Shown here one piece after another: positions 3,185 through 49,932 of a DNA stretch of 64,000 bases; position 1 is the stretch's first letter, and each line of letters opens with the position of its first letter. Both the position numbers and the translations under genes were made by a program. The DNA lies in the NCBI RefSeq assembly GCF_003846445.2, contig NZ_CP030139.2, forward strand, positions 1,364,001 to 1,428,000, given 5' to 3'. A model generated the notes under the pieces. It made no database searches. It was not told the DNA's origin and saw only the letters and a program-made list of their open reading frames with translations. The DNA comes from Synechococcus elongatus PCC 11801 (GTDB lineage: Bacteria; Cyanobacteriota; Cyanobacteriia; Synechococcales; Synechococcaceae).

Positions 3185-3326
3185 CGTTCTGGTCTAACAC
3201 GATCCCTAGAGCTGGCTCCAAGGTCCACCCCTTTTCTCCACCATAGGCAACCGCAGTGAGTCTCAATGGTTGCAATTGATGCAGCAGCTCAGAATTAGGA
3301 CGCGATCGCCCAGAAGTTACGCAGAC

Positions 3327-4106
3327 TCAACGGATTCGTTCCAGTTGCCAGAGAATTTGATTGCCCTCGCGGCGATCGCGCTTCACTCGCCAGTTGCGCC
3401 AAATCCATTCCTCACCTCGGCTGGTCACCGCGCTGGCATTGACGTCCATAAGATCCGCGAGTTCGGAACTGGTGATTAAAAATTGCTTATCAGCAATGAC
3501 TTCTGCAATTTGCAAGCAGTCCAGCACATCACGTAGGCGATGGCTGCGATCGCGGGGGCTCTCCCCCGACTCTGGGGTCACAACTTCAGGCATCCTAGCG
3601 GGCTCCTGCTGTGGCTGCCCCGATTGTAGTGGTGCATCCGACCGTTGGCAGAGCGGTAACGGGCGTTGCTGGGCAAAACTACGGGCAATTTGATCACAAC
3701 GCTCATTGCTGGGATCGCCGTTGTGACCGCGCACGTGCTGCCATTGCACCAAGGGGGCATTGAGGTCATCGAGGTGCATCCACAAATCCTGATTGAGCAC
3801 CGGCTTGCCCTGAGCCGTCTTCCAACCCTTGCGCTGCCAACCCTTGAGCCACTGCGTGATCCCTTTAATGACGTATTCGCTATCGGTGTAGAGCGTCACC
3901 GGTTGCTGAGGGGATTGATCACGCCAGAACTCCAATGCCGCGATCGCAGCTTGGAGTTCCATCCGATTGTTCGTCGTGGCAGCCGCATACCCGCCTAACT
4001 CTTGAATGCTGCCGTCAGCAAACTGAATCTGTACCCCCCACCCCCCAGGTCCCGGGTTCCCTGTGCAAGCGCCATCAGTGTAGAGGCGGAGGATGGCATC
4101 AGACAT
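3327..4106 (-). CDS. rnhA: ribonuclease HI with extra C-terminal domain
   Basis: Cleaves the RNA strand of RNA-DNA hybrids. Residues 1-148 are a complete RNase HI: YTDGACTGNPGPGGWG at the N terminus, and catalytic acids Asp11, Glu50 (NNRMEL), Asp75 (YTDSEYV) and Asp138, with the flexible-loop His128 in HVRGHNGD. The family is normally about 150-160 residues. Here a ~40-residue polar linker and a ~75-residue C-terminal module follow. That module contains ITSSELADLMDVNASAVTSR, which reads like a winged-helix DNA-binding segment, and ends in WRVKRDRREGNQILWQLERI. I have seen that module in other cyanobacterial proteins, so the fusion is probably lineage-specific. Its effect on RNase H is unknown. 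Confidence 0.93.
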   Translation of the reverse strand: MSDAILRLYTDGACTGNPGPGGWGVQIQFADGSIQELGGYAAATTNNRMELQAAIAALEFWRDQSPQQPVTLYTDSEYVIKGITQWLKGWQRKGWKTAQGKPVLNQDLWMHLDDLNAPLVQWQHVRGHNGDPSNERCDQIARSFAQQRPLPLCQRSDAPLQSGQPQQEPARMPEVVTPESGESPRDRSHRLRDVLDCLQIAEVIADKQFLITSSELADLMDVNASAVTSRGEEWIWRNWRVKRDRREGNQILWQLERIR

Positions 4107-4350: not shown

Positions 4351-5151
4351 ATGTGCGAACTCCTGGGGATGAGTGCCAATACCCCCACTGATCTCTGCTT
4401 TTCGTTTCGCGGCTTTTCAGCGCGGGGCGGGCGCACAGGGGAACATCGCGACGGTTGGGGCTGTGCATTTTATCTTGGCGATCGCCTGCTACGGGTCATC
4501 GATCCCGAACCGGCAGCAGAGTCGCCCCTCGCTGATGTCCTGCGCCGCGTGCCAATCCGGTCCAAGTTGGCGCTGTCCCACATCCGCAAGGCCACGCAGG
4601 GAAGCGTTGACCCCCGCAACTGCCATCCCTTCTCACAAAAACTGGGCGATCGCGAATGGGTGTTTGCCCACAACGGTCACATCGAATTCGAACTGCTGCG
4701 CGATCGCTGCCCTTTGAAGTACTACTTGCCCCAAGGGGAAACGGATAGCGAACACCTGTTCTGCTGGATCCTCGATCGGCTAGCTGCGCTAGTCCAACCA
4801 GAACCGGAGCAGGTGCTAGCAATTCTGCGTGATCTTAGCGATCGCCTGCCCAGTCCCAGCATTGTTAATTTCCTGCTGGGCGATGGACGCTATCTCTATG
4901 CCCACTGCTCTACGTCCTTAGCCTGGGTGACGCGGCGCTATCCCTTTACCAAAGCCAGCTTGATCGATGAGGATCACACGATCGACTTTGCAGGCTGCAC
5001 GCGCCCCAGTGATGTCGTCAGCATCATTGCCACCCGTCCTCTGACACAAGATGAGGTCTGGACAGTCCTTAACCCAGGTGATCTCTTGGTGCTGGCGGAG
5101 GGTGAGCTAGTCGCACAAACGGCAACAACACCGATCGCGATCGCCTCTTAA
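4351..5151 (+). CDS. class II glutamine amidotransferase (YafJ/EgtC-like)
   Basis: N-terminal nucleophile glutaminase of 266 residues. After removal of Met1, Cys2 (MCELLGMSA) would be the catalytic nucleophile. The oxyanion and substrate region EHRDGWGCAFY and the block LALSHIRKATQGSV, followed by NCHPF and WVFAHNGHI, match stand-alone class II GATases. There is no fused synthetase domain, so the ammonia acceptor is not identifiable from this protein alone; the ergothioneine-type partner EgtC family is one relative. It stands alone: the 244 bases upstream (4107-4350) show no gene, only a short CTAGG/CCTAG inverted pair near 4300. Confidence 0.85.
   Translation: MCELLGMSANTPTDLCFSFRGFSARGGRTGEHRDGWGCAFYLGDRLLRVIDPEPAAESPLADVLRRVPIRSKLALSHIRKATQGSVDPRNCHPFSQKLGDREWVFAHNGHIEFELLRDRCPLKYYLPQGETDSEHLFCWILDRLAALVQPEPEQVLAILRDLSDRLPSPSIVNFLLGDGRYLYAHCSTSLAWVTRRYPFTKASLIDEDHTIDFAGCTRPSDVVSIIATRPLTQDEVWTVLNPGDLLVLAEGELVAQTATTPIAIAS
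4646..4653. repeat. HIP1 palindrome GCGATCGC (representative copy)
   Basis: One example of the highly iterated palindrome that is spread over the entire window, usually inside genes; another exact copy is at 4700-4707. Counting by eye, roughly 18 copies fall in the 3.7 kb oxoprolinase gene (12684-16340). Only about 4 fall in each of 17200-20700 and 39622-43946. HIP1 abundance is a hallmark of S. elongatus and many other cyanobacteria. Confidence 0.95.
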
Positions 5152-5235
5152 TACAGCTGAAAAAAAAGGGTTGAATCGGCACGATGCCGCAATCCCGTGC
5201 CCAAGCTAGCGACACAACTGGGCTGGTTTGCACGA

Positions 5236-5640
5236 ATGAAACCCGATCGCCCCCTCCAAATCATCAGCCTGTGGAGCAGCTTCCTACTGGGTACGCTCTT
5301 CCACACCCAGTTGGGTTTGATGCCGTTATTCCACGGTCGCAGTGTCATCGTCGAAAGTCAGCAAAGTGATCAAACCCTGAACGGGATTTTCTGGGGAATG
5401 TTGATTTTCTTCGTGATTCCGATGTTGGCGATCATGCTGACTGCGGAGCGCAGCGATCGCCCTTACCGACGCTGGCACTTTGGTTTCACGGTTCTCTATT
5501 CGATTCTGAATTTTTCACACCTGTTGGCAGACTTGGCCGTCCGACCAATCATTGCCAATCAAATCTTCCTGATGGGGCTGCTATTTGCGATCGGGCTGAA
5601 GCTCAATCAAGTGGCTTGGGCTTGGTTGCGAGAAGCCTAA
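5236..5640 (+). CDS. conserved cyanobacterial membrane protein, unknown
   Basis: A 134-residue protein with four predicted membrane helices: LQIISLWSSFLLGTLFHTQL, then a segment around IFWGMLIFFVIPMLAIML, then two at the C terminus ending in LLFAIGLKLNQVAWAW. Two histidines lie near helix ends (FHTQLGLMPLFHG and HLLADL). I recognise no domain. A GTG at 5197 in the same frame would add 13 residues; the ATG is preferred because homology-like character begins just after it. It follows the amidotransferase by 45-85 bases in the same orientation. The next 220 bases (5641-5864) contain no convincing gene. Confidence 0.7.
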   Translation: MKPDRPLQIISLWSSFLLGTLFHTQLGLMPLFHGRSVIVESQQSDQTLNGIFWGMLIFFVIPMLAIMLTAERSDRPYRRWHFGFTVLYSILNFSHLLADLAVRPIIANQIFLMGLLFAIGLKLNQVAWAWLREA

Positions 5641-5864
5641 CTGGCATCAGCTGCGGTGCCCTTCTCAGTGTTCGTCCTGCCAATCCTCATGCACGGCAAC
5701 ATCCACAAATGCCGTAAGCTAGCGGCAAGGTGATGGAGCTCACCTCAACCGCGCATTCGGGTTCTCCCGATCGCTGATGGCTCCTACAGTTCTGGCTAGG
5801 GCGAGATCTGTAGCGAGTGCATCGTCCACTTTTGTCCCTAGCCGCACACGCAAACCGTAGGGAA

Positions 5865-7511
5865 ATGGGCGTGATGTTGGCCAATTGGATAGGAATCTTA
5901 CTCGGGGGCTTTCTGGCCGGACAGGTCAGCCGTCGCCTTGGTGCCCCCGCACTCATCGGCATGATCCTCTGGGGAATCCTGCTAGGTCCTCAGGTGAGCC
6001 AGTGGCTCAGTCCAGCTCTTTTGGAGCAAGCCAGCAGCTGGCGAACTCTCGCCGTGATGGTCATTCTGGTCAAAGCCGGTCTTGGGCTCGATCGCGAAAA
6101 ACTGGCTCAGCAGGGATCAGTAGCGCTGCGACTGGGGATTTTGCCCGCTGCCTGTGAAGCACTGGTGGTGGCGATCGCGGCCCATTACCTACTGAACTTT
6201 GACTGGCTGACAGGGTTACTGCTGGGCTGCGTCATCGGGGCAGAATCACCAGCAGTGATTGTGCCGGGGATGCTGCGGCTCAAGCAACTGGGACTGGGGG
6301 TGCGCAAGGGTATTCCCGATGCCATTTTGACGGGCAGTGCCCTCTCGGATGTGTTACTGCTCTTGGTGTTTAGTCTGCTGCTAGCGCTATTGACCCCAGG
6401 GGATGGGCAAGGCTGGACACTGCCAGGGCTGGGGCAAATCAACCCTTGGATCCTGCTGCCAATCCAAGTGCTCCTACAAGTTGGCTTGGGCGCCGTCTTA
6501 GGTTTTGTCGCGGCGCGACTGCTCGTTCGCATGCTGGGACAACAGCGCTGGACGCAAACGCTGACCCAAGACACGCTGGTGACCGCTGCGATCGCCTTGG
6601 GATTAGTCCTTGCCGCCGAGCGACTGCCCATTTTCTCCGGCTATCTGGCCGTGATGGCTCTGGGCTATTTCGTTGTGGAGCTAGATGCACCACTGGCACG
6701 CCGGCTGAGGCAAGGCTTCGACAGTCTTTGGGCGATTGCCCAAATTGCCCTGTTTGTTCTGTTAGGGGCGGGCTTACCCCTGACGGCCTTGGTGCAACTC
6801 TGGCAACCGGGGCTCCTGATCTTGCTCTTGGGCACACTCGTTGGCCGCAGTCTGGGTTGGGCACTCTCCACCTGGGGCAGCAATTGGAACTGGCGGGAGC
6901 GCAGCTTTCTCCTAGCAGGCAATTCAGCGAAAGCCACGGTACAAGCTGCGATCGGGGGTGTGCCTCTGGCTGCGGGACTACCCGAGGGGCAAAGTATTCT
7001 GGCGATCGCGGTGCTCTCAATTGTGCTGACTGCCCCCCTCGGAGCTTGGGCGATTCCCACCTTTGCTCCCCGCCTCTTGAGCCGTGATCCGGTTGACCCC
7101 ACCCAAGTCAGTCGCGATCGCCCGGTGCGCTTGCTCGCTGCCGTCGATACCTCGCCTTTGGCGATCGCCGTGTTGCTCAAAGCTGCGGAATTAGCCCGGC
7201 GATCGGAGGCAGAGGTGGTGATCCTGCATGTTGCACAAGCCAGTGATGACCGCTCTCTTCTGGCCTTACAGGAACAAATTCAGCGATCGCTCGCCGATAT
7301 TCGCCATCAGTTCTGGCTGCGGGAAGGCGCAATTCCCGAAACCATCGATCGCTGCGCCCAGGATTGGGGAGCTGACGAAATTATTCTCGGCAAGCATGAA
7401 CAACCGCACTTGCCTGAAGTTCGGTTAGGGTCTGTCTCGCAAACCCTGCTCGACGTCAGCACCATTCCTGTCATCTTGGTCGAGCCGGTCGCTGCAGATC
7501 AAACTTCCTGA
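5865..7511 (+). CDS. CPA-type Na+(K+)/H+ antiporter with C-terminal universal stress protein domain
   Basis: Membrane exchanger of about 548 residues. The first ~410 form the antiporter: about 12-13 hydrophobic helices, including GAESPAVIVPGMLRL in the core, characteristic of the NhaP/CPA1 group. After a cytoplasmic linker, residues ~425-545 form a UspA-like domain (VRLLAAVDTSPLAIAVLLKA ... ADEIILGKHEQP ... VSQTLLDVSTIPVILVEP). The USP part usually binds adenine nucleotide and may gate transport. ATG at 5865 is chosen; ATG at 5874 is equally possible. Its 3' end overlaps the convergent gene at 7499 by 13 bases. S. elongatus encodes several antiporters and I cannot tell which numbered nhaS this is. 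Confidence 0.85.
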   Translation: MGVMLANWIGILLGGFLAGQVSRRLGAPALIGMILWGILLGPQVSQWLSPALLEQASSWRTLAVMVILVKAGLGLDREKLAQQGSVALRLGILPAACEALVVAIAAHYLLNFDWLTGLLLGCVIGAESPAVIVPGMLRLKQLGLGVRKGIPDAILTGSALSDVLLLLVFSLLLALLTPGDGQGWTLPGLGQINPWILLPIQVLLQVGLGAVLGFVAARLLVRMLGQQRWTQTLTQDTLVTAAIALGLVLAAERLPIFSGYLAVMALGYFVVELDAPLARRLRQGFDSLWAIAQIALFVLLGAGLPLTALVQLWQPGLLILLLGTLVGRSLGWALSTWGSNWNWRERSFLLAGNSAKATVQAAIGGVPLAAGLPEGQSILAIAVLSIVLTAPLGAWAIPTFAPRLLSRDPVDPTQVSRDRPVRLLAAVDTSPLAIAVLLKAAELARRSEAEVVILHVAQASDDRSLLALQEQIQRSLADIRHQFWLREGAIPETIDRCAQDWGADEIILGKHEQPHLPEVRLGSVSQTLLDVSTIPVILVEPVAADQTS

Positions 7512-7903
7512 CTCAGCTCCACCCCCAACAGACAAAATTGCGATTCACTCTGCTGGGAGGTGAGGCCATTGGGTTGCTGGACTAAAGCTTGCACATGCCA
7601 GAGCGCTTCGTAGGGCGGGGGGCTGCTGGGCTGTTGCTCTCCTTGCAAGACCAGCCGCTGGGGCAAAGGCGGAGCACAGCGTCGCTCCAGGAGGGAGAGA
7701 ATCCGCTGGCCAAGCTGGGCGGGCGAGAGATGATTGGGGTCCCAGTTCACCGCTGCAATCCAAGCGGGATGGTCGAGTCCTTCAACGGTGGCATCTGCGT
7801 CGGGGCCACTGAGGCCCATTTGCAGCAGCGCCACGATCGCCTCACGACTGAGAGGACGAGCACTGTCGGGAGTTGGGTAAGCCAGAAGGAGGCGGGCAGT
7901 CAT
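7499..7903 (-). CDS. conserved hypothetical protein downstream of menF
   Basis: A 134-residue soluble protein without recognised domain. The N-terminal half resembles a small alpha/beta unit (MTARLLLAYPTPDSARPLSR ... LLQMGLSGPDADATVEGLDH). The C-terminal half is rich in Gln, Pro and Leu. It starts 28 bases after the menF stop codon on the same strand, so it is probably in the same transcript; a link to phylloquinone synthesis is only contextual. It overlaps the antiporter gene tail-to-tail by 13 bases. Confidence 0.65.
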   Translation of the reverse strand: MTARLLLAYPTPDSARPLSREAIVALLQMGLSGPDADATVEGLDHPAWIAAVNWDPNHLSPAQLGQRILSLLERRCAPPLPQRLVLQGEQQPSSPPPYEALWHVQALVQQPNGLTSQQSESQFCLLGVELSQEV

Positions 7904-33915: not shown

Positions 33916-34959
33916 CTAGCGCTCCACCGCAAGTTCCAGCAGCCGATGCACCAGCTCGGGGAAGGCAACGCCACTGGCTGCCCAGAGTTGTGGGTACATA
34001 CTCAAGGCCGTGAAACCGGGCAGAGTGTTGATCTCGTTCAGGAAAATCTGGCCTTGGCTATCCAAGAAAAAGTCCAGACGACTGAGGCCCGAAGCATCTA
34101 CCGCTTGGAAGGCTGCGATCGCGAGTTCTTGAAGTTTTTGCTGCAAGTCCGCCGAGAGTTGAGCGGGGATCAACAGTTGGGCTTTGCCGTCGGTGTACTT
34201 GGTTTCGTAGTCGTAGAAGTCGCTGTCGTAGGTGATTTCGCCCAGAATCGAGGCTTGAGGATAGTCGTTGCCCAGCACGGCGCATTCGACCTCGCGGGGA
34301 TTGGCGATCGCGGCTTCAACAATTAGGCGGCGATCAAGCGCAGCCGCTTGGTCAAGGGCAGCTTCTAGTTCAGCGCGATCGCGGACTTTAGCGATCCCCA
34401 CTGACGACCCTAGATTGGCGGGCTTCACGAAACAGGGATAGCCCAACTCCGTTTCAATCTGATCCAGCAAACTGGTATAGCGGCAGGGATCTGAAAAAAC
34501 TTGGCTGCGATTGACGGCAACGTAGGCCACTTGCGGCAGACCCGCTTGAGCAAAAGCCTGTTTCATGGCGATTTTGTCCATGCCCAAGGCTGATCCCAGC
34601 ACACCGGAACCAACAAAGGGACGCTGCATCAGCGTCAGTAAACCCTGAATCGTGCCGTCTTCGCCGTTGGGGCCGTGCAGGATCGGGAACCAGACTTCGA
34701 TTTCGCGACAGTTCGCCGGGAATTGCCAGCGATCGCGGGGTGCTTCGACCACTAGCGGTTGCTGACTGGCAAGGACTTGGGCTGCGGTTGCGCCGCTGTG
34801 CCAGCCACCTTCCTTATCGATGTAGAAGGGCAGGACTTGGTAGCGATCGCGATTGGTTGGATCAGCCAAAGCAGAGGCGATCGCCGCTGCCGAGCGGATC
34901 GACACCTCATGTTCGCCCGATCGCCCGCCAAACAGTAACCCAACCTTTTTTGCTGCCAC
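33916..34959 (-). CDS. ddl: D-alanine--D-alanine ligase
   Basis: ATP-grasp enzyme that makes the terminal dipeptide of the peptidoglycan stem. The 347-residue chain opens with [20 protein letters not shown]. It contains [55 protein letters not shown] and the metal site [20 protein letters not shown]. All substrate-binding positions of the family appear present. It sits between miaB (31 bases upstream) and the unknown membrane gene, in the wall/division operon. Confidence 0.96.
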
Positions 34960-34990: not shown

Positions 34991-36349
34991 TTAACACCCA
35001 GCCGCCACGGGGCTGAGGATCTGTCCCGTCAGGCTGAAGGCACGCGTTTCTGTGATCCGTACTGGCACCAGTTGCCCTTCTAGTTGGGCGATCGTGCCAT
35101 CGCAGAAGACGAGGCGATTGGTGCGCGTCCGACCCATCACCTGCTGAGGATTGCGCGGATTGGTCGCTTCGATCAGCACTTCTTCAGTGCGACCCAAATA
35201 GCGCTGCGAGCGATCGGCAGCCATTTGCGCCACCAAGTGATTGAGCCGCTGCAGGCGATCTTGCTTGACCTCTTCCGACAGTTGATCCGGTGCGTTGGCG
35301 GCTGGCGTGCCCGGACGGGGTGAATAGGCAGCGGTGTTGACCAGATCAAATCCGACCTGTTCAACCAGTTTCAGTGTGTTCTCAAATTGTTCTTCGGTTT
35401 CACCTGGGAAAGCCACGATCGCATCCGCACTAATTGCGGCATCGGGGATGATCTCGCGGATCTGTTCAACAATTCGCAGATAGCGCTCGACGGTATAACC
35501 GCGCGCCATCGCTTTCAGGACATCGTTGTCACCGGACTGGAAGGGAATGTGGAAGTATTCGCAGACCTTGGGCAACTCGGCACAGGCGCGGATCAGTCGC
35601 TCAGTGAAATAGCGGGGGTGACTAGTAGCAAAGCGGATTCGCTCAATCCCCGGCACATCGTGGACGTAGTAGAGCAAGTCCGTCAGAGTGTGCAGGTGGC
35701 GACCTTCAGGGGTGCTACCCGGCAGATCGCGACCGTAGGCATCGATGTTTTGTCCCAGCAGCGTAATTTCACGGTAGCCCTGGGCTGCCAACTGTTCGAT
35801 CTCAGCCCGGATCGCCGCCGGTTCCCGCGATTGCTCGCGACCGCGAACATTGGGAACCACGCAGTAGGTGCAGCGCTCGTTGCAGCCGTAAATGACATTG
35901 ACCCAAGCGGTGATAGTGCTATCGCGGCGAGGTTGGGTGATGTCTTCGGCGATTTCGACTTCTTCAGTCGCAACCACTTGACTGCCTGCTTCCACCTGGG
36001 TCAGCAAATCGGCGAGGCGATTGGCATGTTGCGGCCCCATCACCAAGTCCAGCTCTGGCACCCGCCGCAGTAGCGATTCGCCTTCTTGCTGCGCCACACA
36101 GCCCGCCACAATCAACGTCAGATCCGGTTGCTGGCGTTTGCGTTCGGCCTGTCGACCCAAGTAGGAGTAGACCTTTTGCTCGGCATTGTCGCGAATCGTG
36201 CAGGTGTTGTAGAGCACCAGATCCGCGTCGTTGGCTTCCTCGCTCCAGACATAGCCCAAATCCTCGAGGATGCCAGCCATCCGCTCCGAGTCGGCCTTGT
36301 TCATTTGGCAGCCGAAGGTGGTGATGTGGTAGCGCCGAGGCGTGGACAT
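34991..36349 (-). CDS. miaB: tRNA-2-methylthio-N6-isopentenyladenosine synthase
   Basis: Radical SAM methylthiotransferase that adds the 2-methylthio group to i6A37 in tRNA. The 452 residues contain the three auxiliary-cluster cysteines ([11 protein letters not shown] at 14, [11 protein letters not shown] at ~50, AGCVAQQEG at ~84). The radical SAM triad is in [22 protein letters not shown]-terminal TRAM domain follows ([20 protein letters not shown]). ATG 36349 ([13 protein letters not shown]) is preferred to an ATG ten codons upstream. It is the first gene of the minus-strand run leading to ftsZ. Confidence 0.96.
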
Positions 36350-36428
36350 GACGATGGCAGGGACAGCCGCAGGAAACAAACCTTTATTCTAAAGGTCACT
36401 TTTCGACCCCGCGCAGTCGGGCGATCGC

Positions 36429-37463
36429 GTGCAACTCTCGTTTGAACCGTTCACTGTTAACAAACGCTTTGCCCTGCGAATCAGTCGCGGCAGTACCCAA
36501 GCGACCACGAATCTCTGGGTGCGCCTGCAGCAGGACGGCGTTGAAGGTTGGGGAGAAGCCTCACCGTTTTCAACCGGTCAGCAGCCACAGACGACAGAAT
36601 TACTCAGTGAAGCGTTGACTGCGATCGCTCCGGCTCTGGGTGATCTCGACCCCTGGAATCAACAGCAGTTTGAAGATCTGACGCAATCGCTCCCTTCTGC
36701 CGCTAGAGCTGCTCTCGATTTAGCGGTGTGGGATTGGCGCGGGAAGGCGTTGGGACAGCCGCTCTGGAAACTGTGGGGACTCGATCGCAATCGCTGTCCG
36801 GTCACCTCCGTCACGATCGGTATTAGCTCACCCGAAGCAGGACAGGACCGTCTTGCCGCTTGGCGCGAGTTGTTCGAGCCAGCCCTGATTAAAGTCAAGC
36901 TCGGTAGTCCCGAAGGTGTTGAGGCCGATCGCGCCCTACTGAATGCCCTGAAAGAAGTTGCTCCGACAACGCCCTTCAGCGTTGATGCCAATGGCGGCTG
37001 GGATGTCGCCACCACGCGATCGCTGGCGGATTGGTTAGTCGAGTCCGGCGTCATTTATCTAGAGCAGCCGCTCGCTAAAGGGCAGGAAGCGGATTTGCTA
37101 CGACTCCGCGATTTGCCGTTGCCGGTCTTCGTCGATGAAAGCGCTTGGACCAGTCAGGATGTGGCGGCTTTGAGTGATCGCGTCGATGGGATCAATCTCA
37201 AATTGCTGAAAACCGGCGGCCTCACAGAAGCCTTGCGAGCGATTCACACAGCCCGGGCTCACGGCTTGCAGTTGATGCTGGGCTGCTATTCCGACAGCAG
37301 CTTGCTCAACAGTGCGGCAGCTCAGTTGGGACCCCTAGTCGATTATCTCGACCTCGACAGTCACCTGAATTTACTGGACGATCCTTTCAGGGGTGCCACG
37401 ATCGAGGCGGGGCGTTTAGTACCGAGCGATCGCCCCGGTCTTGGTGTCCTTCGGCAAGAGTAA
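36429..37463 (+). CDS. enolase-superfamily epimerase (L-Ala-D/L-Glu epimerase or DgcA-like racemase)
   Basis: 344 residues, muconate-lactonizing-enzyme subgroup of the enolase superfamily. The acid/base lysine motif is ALIKVKLGSPEG. Metal ligands follow in FSVDANGGWD, VIYLEQPLA and PVFVDESAW, and the second catalytic lysine is in GINLKLLKTGG. All are intact. Such enzymes epimerise dipeptides like L-Ala-D-Glu released from peptidoglycan. When paired with DUF1611, as here (two bases separate the genes), relatives are assigned as DgcA, racemising N-acetyl-D-glutamate. GTG 36429 is the start. Activity on either substrate is plausible and the pairing favours the second. Confidence 0.88.
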   Translation: MQLSFEPFTVNKRFALRISRGSTQATTNLWVRLQQDGVEGWGEASPFSTGQQPQTTELLSEALTAIAPALGDLDPWNQQQFEDLTQSLPSAARAALDLAVWDWRGKALGQPLWKLWGLDRNRCPVTSVTIGISSPEAGQDRLAAWRELFEPALIKVKLGSPEGVEADRALLNALKEVAPTTPFSVDANGGWDVATTRSLADWLVESGVIYLEQPLAKGQEADLLRLRDLPLPVFVDESAWTSQDVAALSDRVDGINLKLLKTGGLTEALRAIHTARAHGLQLMLGCYSDSSLLNSAAAQLGPLVDYLDLDSHLNLLDDPFRGATIEAGRLVPSDRPGLGVLRQE

Positions 37464-37465
37464 CC

Positions 37466-38515
37466 ATGCTGCAACCCGAGCATCGATTGGCAGTGCTGCT
37501 GCACGGCGGCATTCTGGGGGACAGTGGCAAAACAGGGCTGACTCTGCTGCGCTACCGTCAGGGCGCGATCGCAGCGGTGATCGATCACGAGACAGCGGGA
37601 CAGGACTTCCAGAAGCTGACAGGCATTCCGCGATCGCTGCCGATTTATGGATCTGTAGCGGAGGCGATCGCGGCAACGGAAATTGATGTGCTCGCGATCG
37701 GGATTGCCCCATCTGGCGGTCAGTTGCCCGCGCCATGGCTAGCCGAAATTGATCAGGCTGTGCAGGCAGGACTGGCGATCGCAAATGGACTGCACACGCC
37801 ACTTCTCCCGCGCTATCAGGCGCAGCTTCAGCCCGATCAATGGATCTGGGACATTCGCCAAGAACCAGCAGGATTGGCGATCGGGGGTGGAAGGGCGCGA
37901 TCGCTAACGGCTCAGCGAATTTTGACCGTCGGCACTGACATGAGTGTCGGCAAGATGTCCGCCACCCTAGAACTCGATCGTGCCGCTCAAGCAAAAGGAC
38001 TGCGATCGGCCTTTGTCGGCACAGGCCAAGCCGGCATCCTGATCAGTGGTCAAGGTGTACCGCTCGATGCGGTGCGCGTCGATTTTGCTTCCGGAGCGGT
38101 AGAGCAGGCAGTCCTGTCTGCAGCAGAGCAAGCGGATTACGTCTGGGTTGAAGGTCAAGGCTCATTGCTACATCCCGGCTCAACTGCCACTCTGCCTTTG
38201 CTCCGCGGGAGCCAAGCAACTCATCTGGTGCTTGTTCATCGCCTCGGACAGACCCACAATCGCCACTTTCCTGAGTTCACGATTCCACCTCTGACCGAAG
38301 TGATTCAGCTCTATGAATCGCTGGCAGCAGCAGCAGGCATCTTCGGTAGACCCAAGATTGTGGCGATCGCCCTGAATGGTGGTCAAGCCAGTGACGAGAC
38401 TGTTTTAGACGCTGCTGCTCAGATCAACAGAGAAACTGGCTTACCCTGCACAGATGCAGTGCGGTTTGGCGCGGCAGACTTGTTGACAGCCATTCTGGAG
38501 GCTTGCGACCCCTGA
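37466..38515 (+). CDS. DUF1611 family protein, DgcN-like
   Basis: 349 residues with two parts. The N-terminal Rossmann-like domain (HRLAVLLHGGILGDSGKTGL, AVIDHETAGQDFQ) is followed by a P-loop-like ATPase domain with RILTVGTDMSVGKMSATLEL, FVGTGQAGILISGQG and DYVWVEGQGSLLHPG. DUF1611 proteins paired with an MLE-family racemase have been assigned as DgcN, an N-acetyltransferase acting on D-glutamate in a D-Glu to L-Glu route; I rely on memory for that assignment. It begins two bases after the epimerase stop and is surely co-transcribed. It lies near ddl and ~11 kb from murI, which makes D-glutamate. Confidence 0.85.
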   Translation: MLQPEHRLAVLLHGGILGDSGKTGLTLLRYRQGAIAAVIDHETAGQDFQKLTGIPRSLPIYGSVAEAIAATEIDVLAIGIAPSGGQLPAPWLAEIDQAVQAGLAIANGLHTPLLPRYQAQLQPDQWIWDIRQEPAGLAIGGGRARSLTAQRILTVGTDMSVGKMSATLELDRAAQAKGLRSAFVGTGQAGILISGQGVPLDAVRVDFASGAVEQAVLSAAEQADYVWVEGQGSLLHPGSTATLPLLRGSQATHLVLVHRLGQTHNRHFPEFTIPPLTEVIQLYESLAAAAGIFGRPKIVAIALNGGQASDETVLDAAAQINRETGLPCTDAVRFGAADLLTAILEACDP

Positions 38516-38555
38516 CCCGTACAATGGCGCTGCAACATCAACATAAATCCGATTG

Positions 38556-39350
38556 ATGGGCATTCATTCCACCGCGGTTATCGATCCCCAGGTTGAGCTG
38601 GGTGCAGATGTCGAGATTGGCCCCTATGCGGTGGTGCAAGGCTCGGTGCGTTTGGGCGATCGCTGTTGGCTAGGTCCCCACTCAGTGGTAATGGGCAACC
38701 TACAGCTCGGGTCTGATTGCCGGGTTCATAGTGGTGCGGTCTTGGGCGATTGGCCGCAAGATTTGTCTTTTCAGGGCGCGGAAAGTCATGTGGTGATTGG
38801 CGATCGCAATGTCTTCCGCGAAGGCGTCACGGTTCACCGCGGTACGAAAGAAAACAGCGTCACCACGATCGGTAATGACTGCCTGCTGATGGCTAACAGT
38901 CACGTGGCTCACAATGCCAGCTTGGGGAATAACGTAATTCTGGCGAATGGGGCACTGATTGCGGGCTATGCCCAAGTCGGCGATCGCGCTTTCATTAGCG
39001 GCAACTGTCTTGTTCATCAATTCACCCGTGTCGGGCGTTTGGCGATGATGAGTGGCGGCTCAGCAGTGCAAAAAGATTTGCCGCCCTTCTGCATGACGCG
39101 CAGCTCCACCAGCAACATCGTTATGGGCTTGAATGTCGTTGGTCTGCGGCGGGCAGGCGTCTCCGATCGCGATCGCCTCGAACTGAAGCGAGCCTTCAGC
39201 ATCCTCTATCGCGAACGACTATCTTTTTCAGAGGCGATCGCGCGACTTTCAGCAGACTTTAACTCACCATTAGTGACTGAACTGCAAGCCTTTGTCAGTA
39301 GCTCAGAGCGCGGAATTTGCCGCTTTCTACGAACTGACTTGGATTGCTAG
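38556..39350 (+). CDS. lpxA: acyl-ACP--UDP-N-acetylglucosamine O-acyltransferase
   Basis: First enzyme of lipid A synthesis. The 264-residue protein is a left-handed beta helix. Hexapeptide repeats fill residues 1-185 (IDPQVELGADVEIGPYAVVQ, and VHRGTKENSVTTIGNDCLLM onward). The catalytic His is in MANSHVAHNASLGN. A helical C-terminal part begins at RRAGVSDRDRLELKRAF. Length and the GLNVVGLRRAG hinge are typical of LpxA rather than LpxD. ATG 38556 is chosen over the TTG one codon earlier. The gene stands apart from the usual lpxD-lpxC-fabZ neighbours. Confidence 0.93.
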   Translation: MGIHSTAVIDPQVELGADVEIGPYAVVQGSVRLGDRCWLGPHSVVMGNLQLGSDCRVHSGAVLGDWPQDLSFQGAESHVVIGDRNVFREGVTVHRGTKENSVTTIGNDCLLMANSHVAHNASLGNNVILANGALIAGYAQVGDRAFISGNCLVHQFTRVGRLAMMSGGSAVQKDLPPFCMTRSSTSNIVMGLNVVGLRRAGVSDRDRLELKRAFSILYRERLSFSEAIARLSADFNSPLVTELQAFVSSSERGICRFLRTDLDC

Positions 39351-49062: not shown

Positions 49063-49932
49063 CTAAGCTACGCCTTCCGCTTCCGAAGCAAAGCGCGCCG
49101 AAGGAAGCGATCGCGTTGGCAGTTGAATCAGGTCAACCGGCGCCCGAAACCCTAGCCACCGCTCGATCGCCTGACTAAAGTGCTGAGGATCATGGCTGAC
49201 ACAAAATCGGACAGGCTGGGGGCGATGGCCATGGCGCAGTCCTAAGACTTCTAGCTCCATTTGCACAGCACGAGTGACCGCTTCTGCAGGATCCAACAGC
49301 TGCGTGGTGGCGGGCAAAAGCTGTTGAATAACAGGTGCCAAATGGGGGTAATGGGTACAGCCGTAGATCAACGTGTCGACTTGGGCTTCGATCAAGGGCG
49401 CTAGATACTGCGCAGCAACCTGCAGAGTGTAGGGGTCATCAATGCGTTGCTGCTCAACCAAGGGAACAAACTCTGGACAGCCGATCTCCCAGACCTGAAT
49501 TCGAGGGTTCGCCTCACGCAGGGCATGGCGATAGGCTCGACTTTGAGCAGTAGCAGCCGTGGCAATCACGCCAATCCGTTGACCACGCTGCACGGCAACC
49601 CGTGCCGCTGGCTGAATCAGGCCAATCAGCGGCATCGTGTAATCGGCCCGCAAGGCTTCGAGAGCAAGGGCCGAGCTGGTGTTGCAGGCCATCACGACCA
49701 GCTTGCAGCCTTCCGCTTGCATCCAGTCCAAAATCTCGCGGACAAAGTGGCGAATTTCTGCTGGAGATCGCGTGCCATAGGGTAAGCGAGCCGTATCGCC
49801 GAAATAGAGAAAATTCTCCTGAGGCAGCTGACGTTGCAGAACTCGTAGGACTGTTAGCCCTCCGACACCACTGTCGAACACACCAATCGGGGCAGCGGTC
49901 GAAGAATGCAAGAAAACAGCCCCCGGCGGCAT
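49063..49932 (-). CDS. murI: glutamate racemase
   Basis: Makes D-glutamate for peptidoglycan. The 289-residue protein carries both catalytic cysteines, in VVMACNTSSALALEAL and LIYGCTHYPHLAPV. The N-terminal substrate loop IGVFDSGVGGLTVLRVL and FGDTARLPYGTRS are also present. Its start lies 12 bases after the amidase stop, so the two are co-transcribed. Together with the DgcA/DgcN-like pair at 36-38.5 kb the window encodes both production and possible disposal of D-Glu. Confidence 0.95.
   Translation of the reverse strand: MPPGAVFLHSSTAAPIGVFDSGVGGLTVLRVLQRQLPQENFLYFGDTARLPYGTRSPAEIRHFVREILDWMQAEGCKLVVMACNTSSALALEALRADYTMPLIGLIQPAARVAVQRGQRIGVIATAATAQSRAYRHALREANPRIQVWEIGCPEFVPLVEQQRIDDPYTLQVAAQYLAPLIEAQVDTLIYGCTHYPHLAPVIQQLLPATTQLLDPAEAVTRAVQMELEVLGLRHGHRPQPVRFCVSHDPQHFSQAIERWLGFRAPVDLIQLPTRSLPSARFASEAEGVA

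What the first reader, a model, noticed from the sequence alone, without database searches (positions are those of the whole stretch)
36429..38515. DgcA/DgcN-like pair suggests a D-glutamate route in a cyanobacterium
An intact MLE-family epimerase is followed two bases later by a DUF1611 protein. This pairing corresponds to the DgcA-DgcN assignment for conversion of D-Glu to L-Glu through N-acetylated intermediates, reported in marine heterotrophs as I recall. Finding it in an obligate phototroph, close to ddl and with murI in the same window, suggests recycling of D-Glu from peptidoglycan turnover rather than use as a carbon source.
Basis: partly seen in the sequence, partly recalled or inferred. 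Interest (0 to 1): 0.55.

Follow-up and report, generated by a model that had tools for sequence, protein, structure and literature searches.

The report
Cyanobacterial D-glutamate racemisation gene pair
Two adjoining cyanobacterial genes, an epimerase and a DUF1611 protein related to a known D-glutamate acetylating enzyme, are inherited together across the phylum and probably turn free D-glutamate into N-acetyl-L-glutamate, but the epimerase is not the known DgcA by descent.

Summary
In detail: an intact MLE-family epimerase (36429-37463, +) is followed two bases later by an intact DUF1611 protein (37466-38515, +). It is no local accident: of 386 genomes of the phylum, 119 carry both genes, one only the epimerase, one only a DUF1611 of another type (12 weak partial DUF1611 matches set aside). 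The genes are neighbours in 104 of 120 DUF1611 loci examined. Neither is an orthologue of the named DgcA/DgcN: each scores about half the curated cut-off (210 of 400; 218 of 480 bits), and the data reject one clade of cyanobacterial epimerases plus DgcA. The nearest solved relative is a Bacteroides enzyme whose 80 nearest loci show no DUF1611 but mostly an NlpC/P60 peptidase. The DUF1611 half is homologous to solved DgcN. My reading: DUF1611 N-acetylates free D-Glu, making a dipeptide mimic, and a dipeptide-epimerase-type enzyme inverts it. DUF1611 may have been paired with racemases several times (three epimerase clades, one PLP racemase). Substrate, acyl donor and role in wall recycling are untested; nearness to ddl is local synteny, and murI lies 10.5 kb away.

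The parts
36429..37463 (+). MLE-family epimerase of the dipeptide-epimerase type (DgcA-like by context, not by clade)
37464..37465 (+). two-base gap between stop TAA and start ATG
37466..38515 (+). DUF1611 protein (DgcN-like): N-terminal Rossmann-like domain, C-terminal P-loop domain with conserved GTDxxxGK at residues 156-163
38553..39350 (+). lpxA, co-directional 37 bases downstream; may be co-transcribed here (not tested)
34991..36379 (-). miaB, divergent, 49 bases upstream of the epimerase; context only
33916..34959 (-). ddl, context only; its nearness is shared with one other cyanobacterial family (f19)
49063..49932 (-). murI (glutamate racemase), 10.5 kb away; possible maker of free D-Glu, no linkage shown

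Best explanation
The two genes encode consecutive enzymes that invert free D-glutamate through an N-acylated intermediate. The DUF1611 protein puts an acyl group (acetyl, as reported for DgcN) on the amino group of D-Glu. The product looks like the L-Ala-D-Glu that dipeptide epimerases accept, and the epimerase inverts it by two-base proton transfer (Lys157/Lys258, metal on Asp186, Glu212, Asp236; roles taken from the known superfamily, recalled), giving N-acetyl-L-Glu. Shown here: the pairing, its co-inheritance, the homology to DgcN, and the conservation of catalytic residues and of Arg20. Inferred: substrate, acyl donor, direction and product.
For: Co-inheritance 119 both / 1 / 1 / 265 in 386 genomes (12 weak partial DUF1611 matches counted as absent). 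Epimerase within 2 kb of DUF1611 on the same strand in 104 of 120 loci, 87 of these with an estimated gap of 40 bases or less, in 18 families counting the window's (counted by hand). In one genome what looks like a single deletion has removed the middle of both genes. DUF1611 homologous to DgcN 7xrj (2e-42; TM-score 0.81 by query); 33 positions are over 95% conserved across 126 DUF1611 sequences, five DgcN included, and the window keeps 32 of them. Arg20, aligned with Arg24 of E. coli epimerase, is kept in 94 of 95 cyanobacterial rows, 7 of 7 of family f38 and 3 of 3 DgcA, and in 0 of 47 Bacteroidota relatives, whose loci hold no DUF1611 (0 of 80). Those relatives sit by NlpC/P60 instead (67 of 80 loci; cyanobacterial loci 1 of 120). 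Published function of the pair: EC 2.3.1.312 and 5.1.1.25, D-glutamate to N-acetyl-L-glutamate, as stated in a passage of PMC11747546.
Against: Both proteins miss the DgcA and DgcN cut-offs by about half and lie outside those clades. The adjoining genes, miaB and lpxA, are no LysR (DgcR-like) regulators. The DxD motif, which in dipeptide epimerases is said to bind the free amino group (recalled), is kept in 95 of 95, although DgcA keeps it as well, so it cannot decide. Two haloarchaeal DUF1611-linked epimerases lack the Arg. The DUF1611 fold is P-loop with a Rossmann domain; among the 50 fold matches listed (of 1521 with E <= 10) DgcN is the only one named an acetyltransferase.
Confidence: 0.55

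Rival explanations
1. The epimerase is an ordinary L-Ala-D/L-Glu dipeptide epimerase of wall-peptide recycling, and the DUF1611 protein does another step on the same murein peptides or their products.
For: Best solved match is 3iji (3.7e-57), then E. coli L-Ala-D/L-Glu epimerase 1jpd (8e-35); the tree puts it nearer 3iji-type enzymes than DgcA; DxD kept in 95 of 95; one haloarchaeal DUF1611-epimerase pair stands beside NlpC/P60 and another is in a cluster with D-aminoacylase; NCBI's record of CF6-2 itself names DgcA an L-Ala-D/L-Glu epimerase, and a Pantoea DgcA passes the cut-offs of both models.
Against: The 80 nearest loci of 3iji-type relatives hold no DUF1611 (22 of them are under 9 kb); NlpC/P60 near the cyanobacterial pair in 1 of 120 loci, and the one NlpC/P60 found in the own genome is 1.2 Mb away; dipeptide recycling needs no DUF1611 partner (E. 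coli pathway, recalled), yet the two genes are inherited together.
Confidence: 0.25
2. The pair works by the same capping-and-inverting logic, but on an amino acid other than glutamate, or with an acyl group other than acetyl.
For: DUF1611 proteins of another type adjoin a PLP racemase resembling ornithine racemase (10 of 10 cyanobacterial loci, two of them scanned, and one Vibrio plasmid), so the family may not serve glutamate alone; both proteins lie outside the characterised clades.
Against: Arg20 kept in 94 of 95 argues for an acidic side chain, if its recalled role in E. coli epimerase holds.
Confidence: 0.2

Closest known systems
DgcN-DgcA D-glutamate pathway (EC 2.3.1.312, EC 5.1.1.25) of Pseudoalteromonas sp. 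CF6-2
   Same: Adjoining DUF1611 and MLE-family epimerase genes; homologous DUF1611 with the same conserved residues; same catalytic residues and Arg in the epimerase.
   Different: Order reversed (epimerase first), no adjacent dgcR, both proteins outside the DgcA and DgcN clades and below both cut-offs.
L-Ala-D/L-Glu dipeptide epimerases (E. coli 1jpd; Bacteroides 3iji, the latter's activity recalled)
   Same: Metal ligands, Lys pair, DxD motif; 3iji is the best solved match.
   Different: Bacteroidota relatives of 3iji mostly lie by NlpC/P60 and lack Arg20 and DUF1611; the window enzyme has the reverse. E. coli 1jpd has the Arg.
DUF1611 protein Ava_3511 of Anabaena variabilis (2obn)
   Same: Close homologue in another cyanobacterium, E = 2e-113, 54-55% identity by fold alignment.
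   Different: Released in 2007 under a title that assigns no function.
DUF1611 plus alanine/ornithine-racemase-family enzyme (cyanobacteria, Vibrio)
   Same: DUF1611 next to an amino-acid racemase.
   Different: The racemase is a PLP enzyme of another fold; DUF1611 only about 30% identical.

Membership tests
DgcA (NCBIfam NF042940) | score over the curated cut-off of 400 bits | tested here: not met
   210.3 bits; CF6-2 DgcA 412, Pantoea DgcA 436.3, Bacteroides faecis 3iji-identical protein 222.4
DgcA (NCBIfam NF042940) | shares a clade with characterised DgcA | tested here: not met
   tree; one clade rejected, lnL 112.55 lower, AU p 1.6e-134 (the groups were set after the first tree had been seen)
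DgcA (NCBIfam NF042940) | catalytic Lys pair, metal ligands, Arg of the E. coli R24 position | tested here: met
   K155, K157, D186, E212, D236, K258 in 95 of 95; R20 in 94 of 95 (window included)
DgcA (NCBIfam NF042940) | gene adjoins a DUF1611 gene | tested here: met
DgcA (NCBIfam NF042940) | racemises N-acetyl-D-Glu | not testable with these tools
   needs an enzyme assay
DgcN (NCBIfam NF041892) | score over the curated cut-off of 480 bits | tested here: not met
   217.8 bits; CF6-2 DgcN 493.4
DgcN (NCBIfam NF041892) | same fold and conserved residues as solved DgcN 7xrj | tested here: met
   TM-score 0.81 by query, 30% identity; residues
DgcN (NCBIfam NF041892) | shares a clade with characterised DgcN | tested here: not met
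   the DgcN rows form their own clade with Croceicoccus DUF1611, 100/100
DgcN (NCBIfam NF041892) | N-acetylates D-Glu | not testable with these tools
   needs an enzyme assay
dgc operon | LysR regulator dgcR beside the pair | tested here: not met
   adjoining genes are miaB and lpxA; dgcR does adjoin in CF6-2
L-Ala-D/L-Glu epimerase (NF011708) | score over the curated cut-off of 343 bits | tested here: not met
   140.4 bits
L-Ala-D/L-Glu epimerase (NF011708) | DxD motif and catalytic residues | tested here: met
   not discriminating, DgcA has them too
L-Ala-D/L-Glu epimerase (NF011708) | murein-peptidase neighbour (NlpC/P60), as in Bacteroidota (a habit of those loci, not a strict definition) | tested here: not met
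   tblastn with two NlpC/P60 queries: none in the window, 1 of 120 cyanobacterial loci, 67 of 80 Bacteroidota loci
DUF1611 (PF07755) | score over the gathering cut-off of 25 bits | tested here: met
   247.8 bits

The most novel reading that the evidence does not exclude
DUF1611 is a family of amino-acid capping enzymes that evolution has repeatedly paired with whatever racemase was at hand: at least three separate clades of MLE epimerases and, in another lineage, a PLP ornithine-racemase-like enzyme. In cyanobacteria the glutamate version would hand its product, N-acetyl-L-glutamate, straight to the ArgB/ArgJ arginine pathway, so that wall-type D-glutamate feeds arginine and nitrogen storage without being deacetylated first.
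Probability: 0.2. Interest if true: 0.7.

Novelty: new variant of a known kind. Interest (0 to 1): 0.45.

Why it matters
About a third of the genomes sampled in the phylum (119 of 386) hold this pair, and I found no paper that assigns it a function (searches in the held library only), although a member was solved by 2007. If it is a D-Glu to N-acetyl-L-Glu route, phototrophs have a dedicated way to reclaim a wall building block, and the product is the first intermediate of the arginine pathway. The pairing of DUF1611 with different racemases turns a 'domain of unknown function' into a testable hypothesis about a whole family.

Tried and rejected
Profile score as proof of DgcA: rejected, because a Bacteroides protein identical to 3iji, with no DUF1611 neighbour, scores as high on the DgcA model (222 against 210 bits). 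The DxD motif as a test between dipeptide and N-acetyl substrates: rejected, since DgcA has it too. Nearness to ddl as functional evidence: rejected; a ddl-like gene (known by its sequence, only the window's was scanned) lies in 20 of the 120 fetched loci, all of family f19 by the handles, and the window's epimerase groups with that family's (99/95), so this is shared synteny. ArgJ, NlpC/P60 and M20 hits in the own genome show only that neighbouring steps could exist. An attempt to identify the species through FtsZ led nowhere. A survey of DUF1611 in Bacteroidota failed. Literature: the founding paper (Yu et al. 2023, ISME J 17:537-548, named in the reference list of PMC12363236) is not held; its content is recalled, apart from how PMC10845958, PMC12363236 and PMC11747546 describe the pathway (passages seen). 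Searches on DgcN, DUF1611, dipeptide epimerase with cyanobacteria and the like listed no paper that by its title or abstract start treats this pair (listings only); a search for ornithine racemase with cyanobacteria listed none. PMC3605383, on plant dipeptide epimerases, was read in part (first of five parts). No other paper was opened.

Full report
What is there. The window holds an intact MLE-family epimerase gene at 36429-37463 and, two bases after its stop, an intact DUF1611 gene at 37466-38515, both on the + strand. miaB and ddl lie upstream on the other strand, lpxA follows 37 bases downstream on the same strand, and murI is 10.5 kb further on. The GTG start of the epimerase is supported by relatives whose homology begins at residue 1.

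It is conserved as a pair. Among 386 genomes of the phylum, PF07755 (DUF1611) matched in 132 at E <= 0.001. I set aside 12 of these as weak partial matches (E between 5e-5 and 7e-4). The remaining 120 were compared with the 120 genomes that match the window epimerase at E <= 1e-20: 119 are shared, one (G209) has only a DUF1611, which is of the second type described below, and one (G053, 9% contamination) has only an epimerase, of 38% identity. The 119 include G264, where both genes are remnants, and G172, where the DUF1611 frame is broken. Fisher p is about 1e-98, but genomes are related, so the number of families says more: counted by hand, the genes are neighbours in 18 families, the window's included. 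In three further families (f5, f9, f14; 6 loci) both genes are present but apart.

Neighbourhoods. I fetched 120 of the 129 full-length DUF1611 hits (over 200 bits) with up to 6 kb on each side. The epimerase lies on the same strand within 2 kb in 104: in 97 it comes first, in 7 (all of family f38, outside the window's class) second. The gap is at most 40 bases in 87 of the 104, 41-200 in 10, and more in 7 (gaps estimated from alignment ends). Of the nine hits not fetched, one is the window, six lie beside their epimerase by the coordinates, and two second copies (G272, G370) were not examined. In G264 what looks like one internal deletion has removed the middle of both genes; in G172 the DUF1611 frame is broken while the epimerase is open.

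A second DUF1611. Ten of the 16 remaining loci hold a DUF1611 only about 30% identical to the window's, and all ten have directly beside it a member of one protein cluster. The two members scanned are PLP enzymes of the alanine-racemase family that score 405 and 290 bits on the ornithine racemase model (cut-off 480). The same arrangement is annotated on a Vibrio plasmid. Of the 12 plasmid records with DUF1611 that I opened (out of 100 matching records), five have an epimerase next to it (CF6-2, Pantoea, Vibrio fortis, two haloarchaea), one the PLP racemase, two an unassigned neighbour (one of these with a dipeptide epimerase 3.7 kb upstream), one an SMP-30-like gene, one no epimerase annotated, and two are unannotated. 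DUF1611 is therefore often, not always, a neighbour of a racemase.

Is the epimerase DgcA? By descent, no. On the DgcA model it scores 210 bits against a cut-off of 400. A Bacteroides faecis protein identical to solved 3iji over 337 residues scores 222. The 80 best of 574 such loci contain no DUF1611 (0 of 80; 22 of the 80 are under 9 kb), but NlpC/P60 in 61 by clustering with one member scanned or 67 by tblastn. That 3iji is a dipeptide epimerase is recalled; the PDB name is muconate cycloisomerase. In a tree of 43 rows chosen by hand, DgcA falls with E. coli epimerase 1jpd and 4gfi (100/100), the cyanobacterial and f38 enzymes on the side of 3iji (95/80), and two haloarchaeal ones with Thermotoga 2zad (99/92). 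With the long row Halad_epi1 dropped, the data reject one clade of all DUF1611-linked epimerases (lnL 154.7 lower) and one of cyanobacterial, f38 and DgcA rows (112.5 lower); these groups were tested after the first tree had been seen, and several rows are long or of odd composition. The root is not known, so old pairing with later loss of DUF1611 in relatives is not excluded against repeated pairing.

Is the DUF1611 protein DgcN? It is homologous (7xrj, titled N-acetyltransferase DgcN-25328; 2e-42), but scores 218 against 480 bits and lies outside the DgcN clade. Across 126 DUF1611 sequences 33 positions are over 95% conserved, among them the P-loop (G156, D158, G162, K163), R131, T186-G187-Q188, D201, E213 and E229-G230-Q231; the window departs at one (A251, usually P). 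The predicted model (mean pLDDT 94.4) matches 2obn, 7xrj and 2g0t, then P-loop and Rossmann enzymes such as dethiobiotin synthetase, succinyl-CoA synthetase alpha and Mur ligases with low TM-scores; no GNAT enzyme is among the 50 listed. I recall the founding paper calling DgcN a new group of GNATs; the fold found here is a P-loop domain with a Rossmann domain, so whether ATP takes part deserves a test.

Substrate. Catalytic lysines and metal ligands are kept in all 95 cyanobacterial rows (the window plus 94; with 7 of f38, 101 of 104 epimerase ORFs were recovered). Arg20, aligned with Arg24 of E. coli epimerase (recalled as binding the glutamate side chain), is kept in 94 of 95, 7 of 7 of f38 and 3 of 3 DgcA, but in none of 47 Bacteroidota rows (47 of 80 recovered) and in none of three haloarchaeal rows, two of which are the DUF1611 neighbours of the 2zad clade. 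A glutamyl substrate is thus favoured for the window enzyme, though the Arg is not a mark of DUF1611 pairing as such. The DxD motif does not decide between N-acetyl-Glu and a dipeptide.

How it may work. DgcN-type acetylation makes an N-acyl-D-Glu, chemically like L-Ala-D-Glu. That would explain why enzymes of the dipeptide-epimerase kind, from different clades, serve as partner. The product N-acetyl-L-Glu could go to ArgJ (present) and the arginine pathway, or be deacetylated by an M20 enzyme (two hits over the cut-off, one below it). These last steps are inference. D-Glu as a carbon source or as a wall-recycling product cannot be told apart by sequence.

Verdict. The pair is a widely conserved variant of a known kind in this phylum.

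Noticed in passing
L122, L124, L128, L145, L148, L137, L140, L142, L143, L146 (positions about 4800-7800): A second type of cyanobacterial DUF1611 (about 30% identical) sits directly beside an ornithine-racemase-like PLP enzyme in 10 of 10 loci (two members scanned); the same pair is on a Vibrio plasmid (L280:3860-6174).
   Followed up: partly
L274 (G264), 3296-3850: Remnant in which an apparent deletion joins the start of the epimerase to the end of the DUF1611 gene: both lost together.
   Followed up: partly
L189-L268 (Bacteroidota): 3iji-type epimerases are linked to NlpC/P60 (67 of 80 by tblastn) and a transglutaminase-like gene cluster (42 of 80, one member scanned), an apparent wall-peptide recycling neighbourhood.
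   Followed up: partly
L031:5837-6916: The record of CF6-2, the strain in which I recall the pathway was found, names its dgcA product L-Ala-D/L-Glu epimerase DgcA, while Pantoea and Vibrio records say N-acetyl-D-Glu racemase: naming is unsettled.
   Followed up: no
L036:4816-5931 and L282:4813-5934: In two sphingomonads DUF1611 is followed by a protein of 371-373 aa with no Pfam match in the one scanned (L036), near a TonB receptor and a peptide transporter; possibly another DUF1611 partner.
   Followed up: no
window 38553-39350: lpxA follows the pair on the same strand after 37 bases, so the three genes may share a transcript here.
   Followed up: no
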